Below are positions 1 through 6,959 of a stretch of 6,959 bases of DNA, one piece after another. Below the pieces are notes generated by a model. That model was not told where the DNA came from, did no database searches, and saw only the letters and a program-made list of their open reading frames with translations. Numbering within the stretch: the first letter of the stretch is position 1; every line of letters begins with the position of its first letter. Position numbers and translations under genes: made by a program. The stretch covers positions 1 through 6,959 of the forward strand of contig URWS01000077.1 of assembly GCA_900551605.1 (NCBI GenBank), written 5' to 3'. The DNA comes from an uncultured Collinsella sp. Lineage in GTDB: Bacteria > Actinomycetota > Coriobacteriia > Coriobacteriales > Coriobacteriaceae.

Positions 1-2279
1 CCGTAGGCCTGCTGACCGTACACGATGCCAAAGTTCACGGCCTTGGCGCGACTGCGCAGGTCGGGCGTTACCTCGGACACCGGCACACCGAACACGCGCG
101 CCGCCGTCTCGGCATGGAAGTCCTCGCCCTCGTTAAAGGCGCGCACCAAGTGCTCGTCACCTGAGAGATGCGCCAGCAGACGCAGCTCGATCTGCGAGTA
201 GTCCACCGCCAAAAAGACGCTTCCCTCGCCTGCCGAAAACGCCGTCTTGACGGTACGGCCCAGCTCAGAGCGCGTCGGGATGTTCTGCAGGTTCGGGTCG
301 CTCGAGGACAGACGCCCCGTTGCCGTGATGGTCTGGTTGTACGTAGTGTGTACGCGGCCGTCGCCTCGGCGTAGCGGGCCCAGCGTGTCCAGATAGGTGG
401 ACTTGATCTTAGACTTCTCACGCCAGTCCAAGATCAGACGCACGATTTCGTGGTCACGCGCAAGGTCGCTCAGCACCTTGGCGTTGGTCGAATAATAGCC
501 GCGCTTAGTCTTCTTGAGCCCCTTGGTCGGAAGCCCCATCACATCAAAGAGCACATGCGACAGCTGCATAGGACTGCCAATATTAAAGGTCTCGTCACCC
601 GCCAGGTCGCGAATACTGCGCTCAACCTCGGTAATCTGAGTCGCCAGACCCTCGGACAGACTGTGCAGACGGTCGGGGTCCACGAGCATGCCCGCGCGCT
701 CCATCTTGGCAAGTACCGGAACGAGCGGCATCTCGATGCCATCGAACACGTTGGCGGCATTCTCACGGGCCATGCACTCGCGCAACGGCGCCACGAGCGC
801 CAGCGTCAGAGCCGCAGTACGGGCGGCAGGCGCCGGAGCGTCCTCACAAGCACCCTCTGCGCCGCGCGCCGCAGGCAGCGCCATCTGCAGATACGTATCG
901 GCCAGATATGCCTCGTCAAACTCGGAGCGGTCGGAATCCAACAGGTAAGCGGCGACCACGGTGTCGAAGATGCACGTGGAATCGACTGCTAGCGGATCCA
1001 TGAGCTCGGGCTCAGAAGAATCGATGGGCGAAAGCTCGTGCAGCAGCGCCTTCGTATCCGGGCTCGCCACGCGGCCCTCCATAAACAGGCGCGCAAGCAC
1101 GCCGGCGATCACACCGTGAGCGAAGTTGAAGCCATCGACTACGGCAGTGGAGGCGCCGTCGCCCTCCTCGAGCGCGAACAGGCCCTTGGACGTCGCCAAC
1201 CACAGCGTGCGCGTCAATCCAAAGAGCGCGCCCTCTTCCTTGTCGTCGTCCACCACGGCGGCGACCCACTCGCCGGCATCAATCGCGCGGGAGACCTCAG
1301 CCGCAACGGCACCAAGCGCGTCGGCATCGCCGGCGGCTGCGCGAACCATAGCAGGTATCTCAAACACACTGGAGGCAGCAGCAGCCCCGCCCTCGCCGCC
1401 GATCAGCGCCAAGAAACGGTTCTGCATGGCGGTGATACCAAGTGTGCCCAGCGCCGCGGACACTTCGTCGGCAGAAAACGCCGGGAAGGACGTTTCGTCA
1501 AAGTCGAGCTCGACAGGCGCATCGGTGCGAATGGTTGCGACCTTGCGGCTCAGCAGCGCATCGTCGATGTGAGCACGCAGGTTCTCGCCCATCTTGCCCT
1601 TGACCTCGTCAGCATGCGCGATGACCTCGTCCAAGCTGCCGTACTGCGCAATAAGCGCGCTCGCCTTTTTGGGGCCGATGCCCGGTACGCCGGGAATGTT
1701 GTCCGACGTATCGCCCTTCAGGCCGTAAAAATCGGGCACGAGAGCAGGCGTAATGCCGTGATACAGGTCGTCCACGCTCTCGGGCGTCATGATCGCCACG
1801 TCGGACAGGCCCTTGCGGGTCGAGACCACGTTGACGTGCTCGGTCACGAGCTGATACATGTCGCGATCCCCGGTCACCAGCAGCATGTCGCAGCCGGCCT
1901 CCTCACCCAGGCGCGCCATGGTTCCCAGGATATCGTCGCCTTCCCAGCCCTCGGACTGCAGAATCGGCACGTTGAGCGCGGTGAGCAGCTCCTTGATCAT
2001 CGGAAACTGCGCGTGCAGATCGGGGTCCATGGGCGGGCGCTGCGCCTTATACTGCGGCAGCATTTCCATACGCACGCGCGGCTTGCCCTTATCAAACGCC
2101 ACGACCACACCGTCGGGGTCAAAGGCATCGATCATCTTAAGAAACATATTCAGAAAGCCAAAGATCGCGTTGGTGGGGCGACCGTCCGGCGCGTTCATGG
2201 TGGGCGGCACGGCGTGGAAGGCACGGTGCATGAGCGAGTTGCCGTCGATGACGGCAAAGGTGCGGCGCTTGTCAGACAT
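1..2279 (-). CDS. polA: DNA polymerase I, C-terminus cut off by the window edge
   Basis: Family A DNA polymerase for Okazaki-fragment processing and repair synthesis. The visible 759 codons begin at ATG (2279-2277), with GAGG eight bases upstream at 2291-2288. Residues 1-220 are a 5' nuclease domain: VIDGNS with D12, VAFDKGKP with D63, EGWEGDD with D115/D116, VTGDRD with D138/D140, and the helix-three-turn-helix stretch LKGDTSDNIPGVPGIGPKK near 187-205. The middle domain is a degenerate 3'-5' exonuclease: no clear DxE motif I, and motif III reads AARTAALTLAL where E. coli has the YxxxD of Y497/D501, so proofreading is probably lost. Polymerase motif A, VDYSQIELR, supplies D693 and E698. Motif B has R742, K746, F750 and Y754, a constant 12 fewer than E. 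coli numbering. Motif C and roughly 160 residues lie beyond the edge. The gene is divergent from the aminopeptidase. A weak -10-like TAAACT (2327-2322) is the only promoter hint. Confidence 0.97.
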   Translation of the reverse strand, partial: MSDKRRTFAVIDGNSLMHRAFHAVPPTMNAPDGRPTNAIFGFLNMFLKMIDAFDPDGVVVAFDKGKPRVRMEMLPQYKAQRPPMDPDLHAQFPMIKELLTALNVPILQSEGWEGDDILGTMARLGEEAGCDMLLVTGDRDMYQLVTEHVNVVSTRKGLSDVAIMTPESVDDLYHGITPALVPDFYGLKGDTSDNIPGVPGIGPKKASALIAQYGSLDEVIAHADEVKGKMGENLRAHIDDALLSRKVATIRTDAPVELDFDETSFPAFSADEVSAALGTLGITAMQNRFLALIGGEGGAAAASSVFEIPAMVRAAAGDADALGAVAAEVSRAIDAGEWVAAVVDDDKEEGALFGLTRTLWLATSKGLFALEEGDGASTAVVDGFNFAHGVIAGVLARLFMEGRVASPDTKALLHELSPIDSSEPELMDPLAVDSTCIFDTVVAAYLLDSDRSEFDEAYLADTYLQMALPAARGAEGACEDAPAPAARTAALTLALVAPLRECMARENAANVFDGIEMPLVPVLAKMERAGMLVDPDRLHSLSEGLATQITEVERSIRDLAGDETFNIGSPMQLSHVLFDVMGLPTKGLKKTKRGYYSTNAKVLSDLARDHEIVRLILDWREKSKIKSTYLDTLGPLRRGDGRVHTTYNQTITATGRLSSSDPNLQNIPTRSELGRTVKTAFSAGEGSVFLAVDYSQIELRLLAHLSGDEHLVRAFNEGEDFHAETAARVFGVPVSEVTPDLRSRAKAVNFGIVYGQQAY

Positions 2280-2387
2280 ATTGAATACCTCGCTTTGGGC
2301 TGGGCACGGTTTGCTCACACCAGTTTACACGCTCCCCGCCCCGCGGCCACCGCACATCAGGCTTCCCTGCCGCCGCGGGCCCGCGCG

Positions 2388-2396
2388 TGATACGAT
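2388..2396 (+). promoter_or_regulatory. Candidate extended -10 promoter of the aminopeptidase gene
   Basis: TGATACGAT has the TGn extension plus a -10-like TACGAT hexamer, about 50 bases before the aminopeptidase start. No good -35 hexamer is seen 16-18 bases upstream, where the sequence is GC-rich; extended -10 promoters can work without one. Assigned by eye only. Confidence 0.4.
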
Positions 2397-2445
2397 GGCT
2401 CACGGTACATCAACCAGCACGATCGATCCGAAAGGAGCCTGCGTC

Positions 2446-3843
2446 ATGGAGCGTCCCTGCGCATGGAAAAAGTACACGCCACAGCAAGTCGAGGAACTCG
2501 AGGAGCTTTGCCGCGGCTATAAGCAGTTTTTGAGCGAGAATAAGACCGAGCGCCTGTGCGTCAAGACCGGCATCAAGATGGCCGAGGAGGCGGGCTACGT
2601 CGACTTGGAGACCGTGATTGCCGAGGGCCGCACGCTCAAGGCCGGCGACAAGGTGTACGCCGCCAATCACGGCAAAGACCTCATGCTCGTCAACCTGGGC
2701 ACCGCCCCGCTCGAGCAGGGCTTTAACATCCTGGGTGCTCACGTGGACTCGCCGCGCCTGGACCTTAAGCAGAATCCCGCCTTCGAGGCCGGCGACATGG
2801 CCTACCTCGACACGCACTACTACGGCGGCGTCAAGAGCTACCACTGGGTGGCCTCCCCGCTTGCACTCGTGGGCGTCATCTGCAAAAAGGACGGCACCAC
2901 CGTCGACATCAACATCGGCGACAAGGCAGACGATCCGGTCTTTACCATCTCCGACCTGCTGATCCACCTCTCGAGCGAGCAGATGTCCAAGCCCGCCAAG
3001 GACGCCGTCGACGCCGAGATCCTCGACGTGATCGTGGGCGGCCGTCCCGTCAAGTTTGACGAGGACGACAAGGACGCTCCCAAGGAGCCCGTCAAGCAGA
3101 TGTTCCTGGACATCCTCAAGGAGCAGTACGGCGTCGAGGAGGAGGACTTCCTCTCCGCCGAGATCGAGGTCGTGCCCGCCGGTCCCGCCCGCGACATGGG
3201 CCTCGACCGCTCCATGATTTTGGGCTATGGCCACGACGATCGTGTCTGCGCCTATCCGTCCATGCTCGCCCAGATCGACGTCGCCAACGTGGAGCGCACG
3301 AGCATCACGCTCATCGTCGATAAGGAGGAGATCGGCTCCGTGGGTGCCACCGGTATGACGAGCCGCTTCTTCGAGAACACCGTCGCCGAGATCATGACGC
3401 TCGCCGGCGAGGATAGCCCGCTGGCCCTGCGCCGCGCGCTCGCCCGCAGCCGCATGCTCTCCTCCGACGTGTCCGCCGGTTTCGACCCGGGCTATGCCGG
3501 CAAGTTCGAGACGAAGAACGCCGCCTTTATGGGTCGTGGCCTGTGCTTTAACAAGTACACGGGCAGCCGCGGCAAGGGCGGTTCCAACGACGCCGATGCC
3601 GAGTACGTGGCCCTCGTCCGCGACATCATGGACGAGGCCGGCGTGGACTTCCAGACCTGTGAGCTCGGTCGCGTCAACGCGGGCGGTGGCGGCACCATTG
3701 CCTACATCATGGCCAAGTATGGCATGAACGTCATCGACTCCGGCGTTGCCGTCCTGTCCATGCACGCCCTGTGGGAGGTCGCCAACAAGGCCGATATCTA
3801 CGAGGCCTACCGCGGCTACAAAGCCTTCCTCGAGCGCGCCTAA
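2446..3843 (+). CDS. M18-family zinc aminopeptidase
   Basis: A cytosolic-type metallo-aminopeptidase of peptidase family M18 (aspartyl aminopeptidase/aminopeptidase I group), 465 residues, which fits the bacterial members. It would remove N-terminal residues from peptides using two metal ions; substrate preference cannot be read from sequence. The expected ligands appear in order: GAHVDSP (H99, with D101 beside it), GHDDRVCAY (D264/D265, bridging aspartate), DKEEIGS (E294 catalytic base and E295 ligand), SSDVSAG (D341) and the C-terminal SMHALWE (H440). There is no signal peptide. The start is ATG 2446, preceded by AAAGGAG (2431-2437) at eight bases. The same frame stays open upstream to about 1858, but that part is opposite polA and reads as low-complexity shadow. 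The gene ends with TAA, 12 bases before a terminator-like hairpin, so it is probably monocistronic. Family assignment is firm; a specific gene name is not. Confidence 0.95.
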   Translation: MERPCAWKKYTPQQVEELEELCRGYKQFLSENKTERLCVKTGIKMAEEAGYVDLETVIAEGRTLKAGDKVYAANHGKDLMLVNLGTAPLEQGFNILGAHVDSPRLDLKQNPAFEAGDMAYLDTHYYGGVKSYHWVASPLALVGVICKKDGTTVDINIGDKADDPVFTISDLLIHLSSEQMSKPAKDAVDAEILDVIVGGRPVKFDEDDKDAPKEPVKQMFLDILKEQYGVEEEDFLSAEIEVVPAGPARDMGLDRSMILGYGHDDRVCAYPSMLAQIDVANVERTSITLIVDKEEIGSVGATGMTSRFFENTVAEIMTLAGEDSPLALRRALARSRMLSSDVSAGFDPGYAGKFETKNAAFMGRGLCFNKYTGSRGKGGSNDADAEYVALVRDIMDEAGVDFQTCELGRVNAGGGGTIAYIMAKYGMNVIDSGVAVLSMHALWEVANKADIYEAYRGYKAFLERA

Positions 3844-3855
3844 CCAAACCCTTGT

Positions 3856-3928
3856 AACTTGCGGTGAAATACGGATTCATCAGGCCTTCCAACGGGGAAA
3901 GCGGTCTGTATTTCACCGCAACTTTTTT
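3856..3928 (+). terminator. Long hairpin with T-tract (copy 1 of a paired element)
   Basis: The arms 3859-3872 and 3908-3921 pair perfectly for 14 bases (TTGCGGTGAAATAC with its complement). The pairing extends inward through G3873-T3907, G3874-C3906 and A3875-T3905. A small apical stem (3884-3890 with 3896-3902, one mismatch) can form in the loop. The right arm is followed by CTTTTTT at 3922-3928. It lies 12 bases after the aminopeptidase stop and fits an intrinsic terminator for that gene. Its T-tract ends only three bases before the yaaA ribosome binding site (GGGAGGAGG, 3932-3940), leaving no room for a separate yaaA promoter after it. A related hairpin lies at 4796-4865. Confidence 0.75.
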
Positions 3929-3945
3929 AGCGGGAGGAGGATTCC

Positions 3946-4755
3946 GTGCTACAGGTCGTCATTTCGCCCGCCAAACAGATGCGGACAGCTCAAGATGCCT
4001 TTGACGTTTTGGGCATACCGCCTTTTGCACATCAGACGGCCCGGCTCCATCAGGCACTGCTGGGCATCGAACGCGAGGATGGCGCAGCAGGTCTTCAGGC
4101 CCTTTGGAACGTGAGCGACAGGCTGCTTACAACGTGCCTGGATACGCTTCACGAATTTATGCCCGCCCTGAGCGATGCCGACCTCGCCGATCCCGATATC
4201 GCGCGCCGAATCTCCCCCGCCGTCATGTCCTACCACGGCATCCAATACCAAAGCATGGCGCCCGAGGTCATGGATGCTGCACAGCTCGACTGGCTGCAAA
4301 ACCATCTCTGGATCCTCTCCGGATTGCACGGATGTGTGCGGCCTTTCCATGGCGTTGAGCCCTATCGGCTCGAAATGGGAGCCAAGCTCGCCGTCAACAA
4401 CGCCCGTGACCTCTATGCGTTTTGGGGCGACAAACTTGCATGCGCCATTGCGCCGACCGGCTCCAACACCACGGTCGTCAACCTTGCCAGCGCGGAGTAC
4501 GCCAAGGCCGTTCTACCCCATCTCGCAGGCGACGCCACAACCGTCACTTGTCTCTTTGGCGAAGGTGTCCGCAACGGCAAGCCCATCCAGCGCTCGACCG
4601 CCAGCAAAAAGGCGCGCGGCTCCATGGTGCGCTGGATGGCAGAAAACAAGCTCGAGGACGCCGCCGGTCTTACCGAGTTCAACATCGGCTATCGCCACGC
4701 CCCCGAGATCTCATACCCAGGCACCCTCGTGTTCATCAACGAACAGATGCTCTAG
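3946..4755 (+). CDS. yaaA: YaaA family peroxide-stress protein (DUF328/UPF0246)
   Basis: A 269-residue member of the YaaA family; the E. coli protein has about 258 residues. In E. coli YaaA limits intracellular free iron during hydrogen peroxide stress and has been reported to bind DNA; its biochemical activity is not settled, and the role here is inferred from family. Family landmarks in order: SPAKQM near the N-terminus (SPAK), SYHGIQYQSM around 95, LWILSGLHG followed by VEPYRLEMGAKL (about 122-148), LYAFWGDKL, VVNLASAEY, STASKKARGSM with its conserved KKARG, and the C-terminal FNIGYRHAPE block. The start is GTG 3946, supported by a very strong GGGAGGAGG (3932-3940) five bases upstream. No signal peptide or membrane segment. 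The gene lies between two related hairpins. Transcription probably comes through or from within the upstream hairpin, since no promoter is visible between it and the ribosome binding site. Confidence 0.93.
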   Translation: MLQVVISPAKQMRTAQDAFDVLGIPPFAHQTARLHQALLGIEREDGAAGLQALWNVSDRLLTTCLDTLHEFMPALSDADLADPDIARRISPAVMSYHGIQYQSMAPEVMDAAQLDWLQNHLWILSGLHGCVRPFHGVEPYRLEMGAKLAVNNARDLYAFWGDKLACAIAPTGSNTTVVNLASAEYAKAVLPHLAGDATTVTCLFGEGVRNGKPIQRSTASKKARGSMVRWMAENKLEDAAGLTEFNIGYRHAPEISYPGTLVFINEQML

Positions 4756-4795
4756 ACCCGCCACCCAAAACTGACCCGCTCAGCCTTCTCTATAT

Positions 4796-4865
4796 AACTT
4801 GCGGTGGAATAGTTCCTATTTGAGCCTTTTATCGCACAAACGGGAACTATTCCTCCGCAACTTTT
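4796..4865. terminator. Long hairpin between convergent genes (copy 2 of the paired element)
   Basis: The arms 4799-4816 and 4843-4860 pair over 18 positions with a single mismatch (T4805 opposite T4854). The outer six pairs match those of copy 1 exactly, and the flanks AACTT upstream and CTTTT downstream are also shared. It lies 43 bases after the yaaA stop and 31 bases before the stop of the minus-strand membrane-protein gene, where a bidirectional terminator is expected. The T-tract is modest on the plus strand (4862-4865) and poor on the minus strand (TTATATA), so termination of the minus gene is less certain. Confidence 0.7.
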
Positions 4866-4891
4866 ATGATTTGGCCGGCTAGGTGCGACAC

Positions 4892-5413
4892 CTATTCTGC
4901 TAGGCCGTCGGCCTTTGCAATCCCGTTTGCCGAGCCGTCCTGATAGGTAATCTTGACATGCTCCACCTCAGACACCGCAACACCCGCCGGGGGCTCCAGG
5001 CGCCATTCCGTCAGCGCGATATCCATCGTCGTGGGCACATCTCCTTGATCTTTGAGCTTCACCGTGAGCGTTTTGAACGTCGCGTCAAACGTCACGCGTT
5101 CGATTTCTTCACCTGGAATGGACCCACCACTCAGCTGCAACTGCACAAACTCATCGCGCGGGTACCAATAATCGCCCGGAACGGCGAGCGTATTGGCATT
5201 ACCGCCAGTGCTCCTCACCGTCATGATCGGCAGGCTATCATCAGCCTCGAACTCCCAGGCAGCGCCGCCGCGACCGCCAAACGTCCAAATACAAAAGGCA
5301 ATCACCAGCACGGCAAGCACCGCAAAACCAATCGCGACAAGGCCATGGTGCGCGCGGCTCTCCTCGGCCGATACATCCCATTGCGTCTCTCGATATAGAT
5401 GCTTGTCTTCCAT
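4892..5413 (-). CDS. Unrecognised single-pass membrane protein with extracytoplasmic domain
   Basis: I do not recognise the family. The product has 173 residues. Residues 1-24 are polar (MEDKHLYRETQWDV at the start). Residues 25-46 form one strong hydrophobic segment (LVAIGFAVLAVLVIAFCIWTF). About 125 residues follow with alternating hydrophobic/polar stretches (TFDATFKTLTVKLKD, VEHVKITYQDG) that suggest a small beta-rich domain. With R20 and two histidines just before the segment, the N-terminus is probably inside and the C-terminal domain outside. There is no lipobox, cleavable-signal pattern or catalytic motif. ATG 5413 is chosen because GGGGAGG (5425-5419) sits five bases upstream; the in-frame GTG at 5419-5417 overlaps that site and is unlikely. 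It stops with TAG at 4894-4892. The gene is divergent from thiC and convergent with yaaA, so it is probably its own transcription unit. A role in thiamine metabolism is not indicated. Confidence 0.85.
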   Translation of the reverse strand: MEDKHLYRETQWDVSAEESRAHHGLVAIGFAVLAVLVIAFCIWTFGGRGGAAWEFEADDSLPIMTVRSTGGNANTLAVPGDYWYPRDEFVQLQLSGGSIPGEEIERVTFDATFKTLTVKLKDQGDVPTTMDIALTEWRLEPPAGVAVSEVEHVKITYQDGSANGIAKADGLAE

Positions 5414-5446
5414 GTACACCTCCCCACAGGCACGCTCGTTAGGTCA

Positions 5447-5452
5447 ATCGTA
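5447..5452 (-). promoter_or_regulatory. Candidate -10 of the membrane-protein gene
   Basis: On the minus strand TACGAT (5452-5447) would place a transcription start near 5440, giving a leader of roughly 27 bases with the GGGGAGG site. No convincing -35 is seen. The same hexamer is the candidate -10 of the aminopeptidase gene. Tentative. Confidence 0.3.
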
Positions 5453-5463
5453 CCCATTCGAGC

Positions 5464-5469
5464 TATACT
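5464..5469 (+). promoter_or_regulatory. Candidate -10 of the thiC transcript
   Basis: TATACT matches five of six consensus positions and would start transcription around 5475-5477, just before the TPP aptamer. The -35 region around 5439-5446 (TTAGGTCA) is weak. It lies within 20 bases of the opposing candidate -10 of the divergent gene, so the two promoters may be closely overlapping. Confidence 0.45.
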
Positions 5470-5484
5470 TGAGCCCACCACATA

Positions 5485-5576
5485 AACGGGGAGCTTGCAG
5501 GACAAGACGGCAGGCTGAGACTGGGCGCGCCCGCCCTGACCCGCAAACCTGATATGGGTAATGCCAACGAAGGGAG
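5485..5576 (+). promoter_or_regulatory. TPP riboswitch (THI element)
   Basis: This matches the thiamine pyrophosphate aptamer. In order: ACGGGGAGC (5486-5494), the GGCAGGCTGAGA block (5509-5520), GACCC (5538-5542), then ACCTGATATGGGTAATGCC (5547-5565) and AACGAAGGGA (5566-5575). P2 can form from CGGG 5487-5490 with CCCG 5540-5543. P3 can form from GCTTGC 5493-5498 with GCAGGC 5509-5514. A variable GC-rich stem, GGGCG 5523-5527 with CGCCC 5532-5536, lies between the TGAGA and GACCC elements. The conserved 3' end of the aptamer, GAAGGGAG, is also the thiC ribosome binding site (5569-5576), eight bases before ATG. There is no space for a terminator hairpin, so ligand binding most likely blocks translation initiation. 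The 5' strand of P1 is not obvious to me. Confidence 0.95.
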
Positions 5577-5584
5577 CCGTGCCA

Positions 5585-6912
5585 ATGAGCACACAGACCG
5601 AGCCCAAGCTCGTCACGCAAATCGACTTCGCCCGCGCAGGGCAGATCACACCGCAGATGAAAGAGGTCGCCGAGCGTGAGCATCGCGACCCCGAGTACAT
5701 CCGCGAGCGCGTGGCCGACGGCCGCATCGCCATTCCCGCCAACATCGTGCACATAAAAAAGGGCATGCGCGCCTTTGGTGTCGGCGAGGGCCTGTCCACC
5801 AAGGTCAATGTGAACCTGGGCATCTCGGGCGACAAGGCCGATGCCGCCGAGGAATGGAAGAAGGTCAAGATTGCCGAGGACTTTGGCGCCGACGCCATCA
5901 TGGACCTCTCCAACTCGGGCAAGACGCGCCAGTTCCGCCAGCAGCTCATCGACGAGACGCCGCTCATGGTGGGCACCGTCCCCATGTATGACGCCATCGG
6001 CTATATGGAAAAGCCGCTGGTCAAGCTCACCAAGGACGACCTGCTCGAGGTCGTGCGCGCGCATGCCGAGGACGGCGTGGACTTTATGACCATCCACTGC
6101 GGCATCAACAAGTCGGTCATCAAGACCTTCAAGGAAACCGGCCGTCTTATGAACATCGTCAGCCGCGGCGGCTCGCTGCTGTTTGGCTGGATGGAAGTCA
6201 CCGGCAATGAGAACCCCTTCTACGAGTTCTACGACGAGGTGCTCGAGATCTGCCACGAGTACGACGTGACCATCTCGCTCGGCGACTCCTGCCGCCCGGG
6301 CTGTCTCTACGATTCCAACGACGCCACCGAGACTGCCGAGATGATCGAGCTGGGCAAGCTGTGCAAGCGCGCATGGGCCGCGGGCGTCCAGGTCATGGTC
6401 GAGGGCCCCGGCCACATGGCGCTCGACGAGATCGCCGCCAATATGAAGTTGCAGAAGCGCCTGTGCCACAACGCCCCGTTCTATGTGCTGGGGCCGCTGG
6501 TGACCGATATCGGCGTGGGTTACGACCACATCACCGCAGCCATCGGCGGCGCCATCTCAGCGAGCTCCGGTGCCGACTTCCTGTGCTACGTGACACCGGC
6601 AGAGCACCTATGCCTGCCCAACGCCCAGGATGTGCTCGACGGCCTCATGGCCACCAAGATCGCCGCACACGCCGCCGACATCGCCAAAAAGGTGCCCCAC
6701 GCCCGCGACATGGACGACAAGATGGGCCAGGCACGCCGCAAGCTCGACTGGGACGCCATGTGGAAGTGCGCGCTCGACCCGGTTACGGGCAAGAAGCGCT
6801 ACGAGGAGTCCCCCGCCGCCACCGAGGGCACTTGCACTATGTGTGGCAAGATGTGCGCCGTCCGCACCGTCAACAAGATCTTCGAGGGCACCACGATCGA
6901 CCTCGGCATGGA
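5585..6912 (+). CDS. thiC: Phosphomethylpyrimidine synthase ThiC, 3' end missing at contig end
   Basis: ThiC is a radical-SAM [4Fe-4S] enzyme that rearranges aminoimidazole ribotide into hydroxymethylpyrimidine phosphate, the pyrimidine half of thiamine. Here 442 full codons are genomic, fitting the short ThiC form that lacks the extra N-terminal region of the roughly 600-residue enzymes. Landmarks: VNVNLGISGD, VGTVPMYDAIG, DFMTIHCGI, SRGGSLL, SLGDSCRPGC (about 230), VMVEGPGHM (about 270), VTDIGVGYDHITAAIGGA (about 305-322), TPAEHLCLPN (about 336), and cluster cysteines C417, C420, C424 in CTMCGKMC. The spacing is CX2CX3C, one residue shorter than the CX2CX4C usually quoted. I chose ATG 5585 because the ribosome binding site at 5569-5576 fits it; an in-frame ATG at 5561 lies inside the aptamer. 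Reading on past 6912 adds the residues CLLYTSPSPRD and a TAA, all encoded by sequencing adapter, so the true C-terminus is unknown but probably only a few residues away. Confidence 0.97.
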
Positions 6913-6959
6913 CTGTCTCTTATACACATCTCCGAGCCCACGAGACTAAGGCGAATCTC
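6913..6959 (+). other. Untrimmed Illumina Nextera adapter with N701 index (not genomic)
   Basis: Positions 6913-6931 read CTGTCTCTTATACACATCT, the Tn5 mosaic end as seen in read-through. Positions 6932-6946 read CCGAGCCCACGAGAC, the rest of the Nextera read-2 adapter. Positions 6947-6954 are TAAGGCGA, which is the N701 i7 index, and 6955-6959 ATCTC begins the P7 flow-cell sequence. The order and spacing are exactly those of a Nextera library read-through, so this is assembly contamination at a contig end. Confidence 0.98.

What the first reader, a model, noticed from the sequence alone, without database searches (positions are those of the whole stretch)
6913..6959. Contig ends in Nextera adapter plus N701 barcode, creating a false thiC terminus
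The final 47 bases match the Nextera read-2 adapter, a known eight-base index and the first bases of P7, in correct order. The reading frame passes into it and ends at a TAA inside the index (6947-6949), so automatic annotation would report a complete 454-residue ThiC with the bogus tail CLLYTSPSPRD. Any protein entry ending this way is suspect, and the index suggests which library the read came from. The match is visible directly; knowledge of the adapter and index sequences is established.
Basis: partly seen in the sequence, partly recalled or inferred. Interest (0 to 1): 0.85.

Follow-up and report, generated by a model that had tools for sequence, protein, structure and literature searches.

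The report
Sequencing adapter stuck on contig end
The last 47 letters of this Collinsella-like DNA piece are a laboratory sequencing adapter with its sample barcode, likely read past the end of a short fragment, and they would give the vitamin-B1 gene thiC, cut just short of its predicted end, a false protein tail.

Summary
Confirmed artefact. Bases 6913-6959 match exactly the Nextera i7-side adapter, index TAAGGCGA (N701) and five bases of P7. The frame enters at 6913 and stops at TAA 6947-6949, giving 454 residues ending CLLYTSPSPRD. Alignments to 80 relative loci never pass 6912; in 21 of 21 Collinsella-group loci at least 90% identical, the next seven bases are the end of thiC (GGAYTAR), not adapter. 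Of 120 listed relatives 112 have 444 residues, so thiC is almost intact: 442 residues are genuine, residue 443 comes from a hybrid codon, one residue is lost and 11 are invented. Ordinary contamination: low interest as biology, modest as a database-quality signal.

The parts
5585..6912 (+). genuine thiC sequence: 442 codons plus two bases of codon 443
   Evidence: on the 454-aa product: Pfam ThiC_Rad_SAM 620.2 bits, NCBIfam TIGR00190 550.3 bits over cutoff 460; 21 alignments to relative loci end exactly at 6912
6911..6913 (+). hybrid codon GAC: two genomic bases plus the first adapter base (residue 443)
   Evidence: 21 of 21 close loci read GAG here; 11 of 112 relatives of 444 aa have Asp
6913..6931 (+). 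19-base Tn5 mosaic end of the Nextera adapter (names recalled)
   Evidence: exact match; letters as
6932..6946 (+). i7-side part of the Nextera adapter, met past the insert in read 1 (read assignment recalled)
   Evidence: exact match; the same 34-mer is used as a read-trimming string in PMC6460022 (passage seen)
6947..6954 (+). 8-base index TAAGGCGA (N701)
   Evidence: exact match; a table in PMC5570097 gives TAAGGCGA in primers named N701 (passage seen)
6947..6949 (+). false stop codon TAA inside the index
6955..6959 (+). first five bases of the P7 sequence (P7 recalled)
   Evidence: exact match; in IMG/VR the index is followed by P7 in 81 of 86 cases with at least 5 bases left

Best explanation
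Bases 6913-6959 are exactly the Nextera i7-side adapter, index N701 and the first five bases of P7, and they likely entered this Collinsella-like contig through an untrimmed read that ran past the end of a short tagmented insert. Shown: the exact match, its place at the contig's last base, the sharp end of homology at 6912, and the normal thiC ending in relatives. Inferred: Tn5 cut the genomic DNA after base 6912; read 1 crossed the short insert and went on into adapter, index and P7; the read was not trimmed; and the assembler, lacking a better continuation 7 bases before the predicted thiC end, kept the read's tail as the contig end. If 6959 is the last base of such a read, the insert was at most the read length minus 47 bases. 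The open frame would then make a gene caller report a complete ThiC with a hybrid residue 443 and the 11 invented residues CLLYTSPSPRD.
For: Exact 47-mer, 0 in 200 shuffles. Relatives: among the alignments (E <= 1e-20) to the 80 genome loci, 21 end exactly at 6912 and none ends later. In the genus group of G004, 34 of 43 genomes match the thiC end and none of these 34 thiC matches passes 6912. I read on in 30 of the 34: 21 of 21 with at least 90% identity continue GGAYTAR, the last thiC codons with the stop. Protein: 112 of the 120 listed relatives are 444 aa and only the window's own entry has the tail. Artefact control: 121 of 123 IMG/VR occurrences lie within 60 bases of a contig end and point outward; 105 of 106 complete 8-mers are Nextera indices (list recalled), 12 different ones. 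Generality: 68 open frames of at least 60 codons in those loci run into the adapter, 17 with this frame's tail; 120 of 120 listed hits of a tail search end CLLYTSPSPRDRTRSRMPSSA, after 119 different preceding stretches.
Against: No raw reads and no whole assembly of the window are held, so soft-clipping, coverage and the missing continuation were not seen. Two of 123 IMG/VR occurrences are not near a contig end (L139, L194), and a double mosaic end sits inside a contig of G015, so adapter can also get inside contigs by other routes; the read-through step is inferred, not shown.
Confidence: 0.96

Rival explanations
1. The adapter was joined to the genomic DNA in the library molecule itself (adapter concatemer or chimeric ligation), not met at the end of a short insert.
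For: Adapter stretches inside contigs occur: L139 and L194, and a double mosaic end inside a contig of genome G015 (L228).
Against: Here adapter, index and P7 run outward in the read-through order and stop at the contig's last base, as in 121 of 123 IMG/VR occurrences that lie near a contig end.
Confidence: 0.03
2. The tail is real DNA: a natural Tn5-like transposon end or a real ThiC extension in this strain.
For: The first 19 bases are a Tn5 mosaic end, which derives from a natural transposon (recalled).
Against: It is followed by synthetic adapter, a kit index and P7. None of the 80 genome loci carries the 19-mer. Of the 30 thiC loci one does (L228), about 1.4 kb downstream of thiC, as two mosaic ends head to head. 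None of 20,395 E. coli records matches the 47-mer.
Confidence: 0.002

Closest known systems
Nextera (Tn5 tagmentation) adapter read-through contamination at contig ends
   Same: Exact adapter, index and P7 in order, outward at the last bases of the contig; the same picture as 121 of 123 occurrences in IMG/VR
   Different: Nothing in kind; here the index begins with TAA, so in this frame N701 itself supplies a stop right after PRD and makes the false gene look complete
ThiC, phosphomethylpyrimidine synthase of Collinsella
   Same: 98-100% identical to the 120 listed proteins over 97-100% of the product
   Different: The relatives' 444-residue end (most often GMED, then GMDD) is replaced by GMD plus 11 adapter-coded residues

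Membership tests
Nextera adapter read-through | exact adapter sequence | tested here: met
   47 of 47 bases; adapter name recalled
Nextera adapter read-through | a kit index followed by P7 | tested here: met
   TAAGGCGA then ATCTC; N701 named in a table of PMC5570097; P7 recalled
Nextera adapter read-through | lies at the contig end and points outward | tested here: met
   ends at 6959, the last base of the window; one search lists the contig of this protein as 6959 bases long
Nextera adapter read-through | absent from homologous genomes at this place | tested here: met
   0 of 34 thiC-place matches pass 6912; following bases read in 30 of the 34, none is adapter
Nextera adapter read-through | reads soft-clip at the junction; insert shorter than the read | not testable with these tools
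   no reads held; no own assembly
ThiC | score above curated family cut-offs | tested here: met
   PF01964 620.2 over 25; TIGR00190 550.3 over 460 and NF009895 626.2 over 410; a further ThiC model, NF006763, is under its cut-off (432.7 under 650)
BzaB (ThiC-like, B12 lower ligand) | score above TIGR04386 cut-off | tested here: not met
   522.6 under 700

The most novel reading that the evidence does not exclude
The adapter read-through peptides (CLLYTSPSPRD, LSLIHISEPTR, VSYTHLRAHET and their P7 extensions) form a database-scale class of false protein termini: likely thousands of entries carry them, and a plain peptide search would flag them. Strings from the three tails were found in none of the 5.39 million held open-licence papers (YTSPSPRD, HISEPTR, YTHLRAHET).
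Probability: 0.75. Interest if true: 0.35.

Novelty: already known. Interest (0 to 1): 0.15.

Why it matters
The contig itself is ordinary contamination: 6913-6959 should be trimmed and thiC treated as incomplete at its 3' end. The wider point is practical. Unscreened, such tails can create false 'conserved C-terminal motifs' across unrelated proteins, and an index that begins with a stop codon in frame, as N701 does here, makes the false gene look complete.

Tried and rejected
A natural origin of the tail (transposon end, real extension) was rejected on the index and P7 context and the relatives. Two weak extra matches of the group search that do cover tail bases were followed. G032:C42 (query 307-335) is another, error-rich adapter at the end of a Collinsella-group contig, which agrees with the artefact reading. 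G022:C12 (query 285-325) showed no adapter when read and looks like a chance partial match. Four other short matches (G038:C1:508408, G040:C31, G015:C3 and G016:C3) lie within the thiC part of the query and were not followed. Paper searches for the peptide tails found nothing. The more general contamination searches gave listings in which I saw no paper on this exact point; none of those papers was opened. One search found 45 papers holding the 34-mer (20 listed); of these I saw one passage, in PMC6460022, which does not name Nextera. The 100 bases after the thiC stop are less conserved among 13 Collinsella loci (mean pairwise identity 0.84) than the last 103 bases of the gene with its stop (0.94). 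This fits an assembly break at strain variation but does not show it.

Full report
What is there. The 47 bases 6913-6959 match exactly, once, on the + strand, the string adapter (34 bases) + TAAGGCGA + ATCTC (0 of 200 shuffles). They end at the window's last base, and the protein search lists the contig as 6959 bases long. That the 34-mer is a trimming adapter is seen in a passage of PMC6460022, which lists it among its custom read-trimming strings; the name Nextera and the read-1 assignment are recalled. That TAAGGCGA is called N701 is seen in a table of PMC5570097, where N701-N704 barcodes are used in primers.

Effect on the gene. The frame from ATG 5585 passes through the junction and stops at TAA 6947-6949, inside the index, giving 454 residues. 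Of 7978 protein hits the best 120 were listed and read: 112 have exactly 444 residues, ending GMED (94), GMDD (11) or close variants (7). Of the 8 others only the window's own entry carries the adapter tail; the rest have 445-463 residues and other ends. So 442 residues are genuine, residue 443 is read from a hybrid codon, residue 444 is lost and 11 are invented.

Relatives. Over 1-6912 the best-scoring held locus is L041, Collinsella aerofaciens, 94.4% identical. Of the alignments from the 80 genome loci, 21 end exactly at 6912 and none ends later. None of the 80 loci contains the 19-base mosaic end. In the genus group reached through G004, 35 of 43 genomes have some match; 34 match the thiC end, none of these past 6912, one (G016) has only a short hit of about 33 bases inside thiC, and 8 have none. 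I read the following bases in 30 of the 34: the 21 loci at 90-99% identity continue GGAYTAR (13 GGACTAA, 4 GGACTAG, 3 GGATTAA, 1 GGATTAG); the 9 at 79.5-82% continue otherwise, none with adapter at that place (where an alignment stopped up to 9 bases early the place was extrapolated without gaps). One of the 30, L228, has a double mosaic end about 1.4 kb downstream.

Control for the artefact reading. 121 of 123 lie within 60 bases of the locus end, pointing outward, and the contig ranges show that these locus ends are contig ends. 17 have fewer than 8 bases left; of the 106 others, 105 carry an 8-mer of the recalled Nextera list, 12 different ones, N701 twice. Where at least 5 bases follow the index, 81 of 86 agree fully with P7 and 5 do not. 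A biological element would not carry a kit's sample barcodes. The exceptions in place are L139 (inside a contig, 8-mer not in the list) and L194 (149 bases from the end, P7 with a mismatch). By megablast at E <= 0.01 the 47-mer finds 42 of 50,697 phage records, 9 of 72,556 plasmid records and 0 of 20,395 E. coli records.

The tail as a protein signature. In the IMG/VR loci 68 frames open for at least 60 codons run into the adapter: 25 with LSLIHISEPTR, 26 with VSYTHLRAHE, 17 with CLLYTSPSPR. These are mechanical frames, not proven genes. A protein search with the last 40 residues of one such frame (L118, index N702) gave 7997 hits at E <= 10 among 8000 candidates, a cap. All 120 listed end exactly in CLLYTSPSPRDRTRSRMPSSA, after 119 different preceding stretches. 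Only those 120 were read, and only lengths suited to an 82-residue query were eligible, so the true number is not known. The window's own tail is the N701 form, which stops after PRD, and was not counted in that search.

Mechanism. Likely: Tn5 cut after 6912, the insert was shorter than the read, read 1 ran into adapter, index and P7, trimming failed, and the assembler kept the tail. These steps are inferred, since no reads and no assembly of this window are held.

Verdict. As biology it is an artefact of a known kind; the database-scale tail is the only part of wider interest.

Noticed in passing
window 5477-5592 (+): TPP riboswitch-like match just upstream of thiC, 50.9 bits, E 1.6e-9 (search of 201 bases), but under Rfam's gathering score of 54.3, so a default Rfam scan of the window misses it.
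   Followed up: partly
window 3856-3924 and 4796-4863: Two intergenic hairpins share the outer arm AACTTGCGGTGRAATA but differ inside. The 14-base arm CTTGCGGTGRAATA occurs 6 to 8 times in each of 4 Collinsella genomes, control pattern 0. In 20 fetched loci it was read on the + strand only: found in 10, and 9 of these 10 have an inverted partner nearby. This looks like a dispersed REP-like hairpin family; the second window hairpin was found in 4 of 13 Collinsella loci.
   Followed up: partly
L228 3237-3274 (genome G015, contig C12): Two mosaic ends head to head inside a 400 kb contig, like a Nextera mate-pair junction adapter (recalled) left in a genome of the Collinsella group.
   Followed up: partly
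L253, end of contig C42 of genome G032: An error-rich Nextera-like adapter with an index-like stretch and P7 start at the last bases of another Collinsella-group contig.
   Followed up: partly
L201 1501-1547 (MK327946.1 76713-76759, Escherichia phage vB_EcoM_G4507): A 91.5% match to the 47-mer lies where two neighbouring CDS, both named putative baseplate hub subunit and tail lysozyme, meet, so the annotated gene may be split by an adapter. Described only.
   Followed up: no
L139 4953-4986: The 34-base adapter sits inside a 9.7 kb IMG/VR contig, 4.7 kb from the end, followed by bases that are not in the recalled index list.
   Followed up: no
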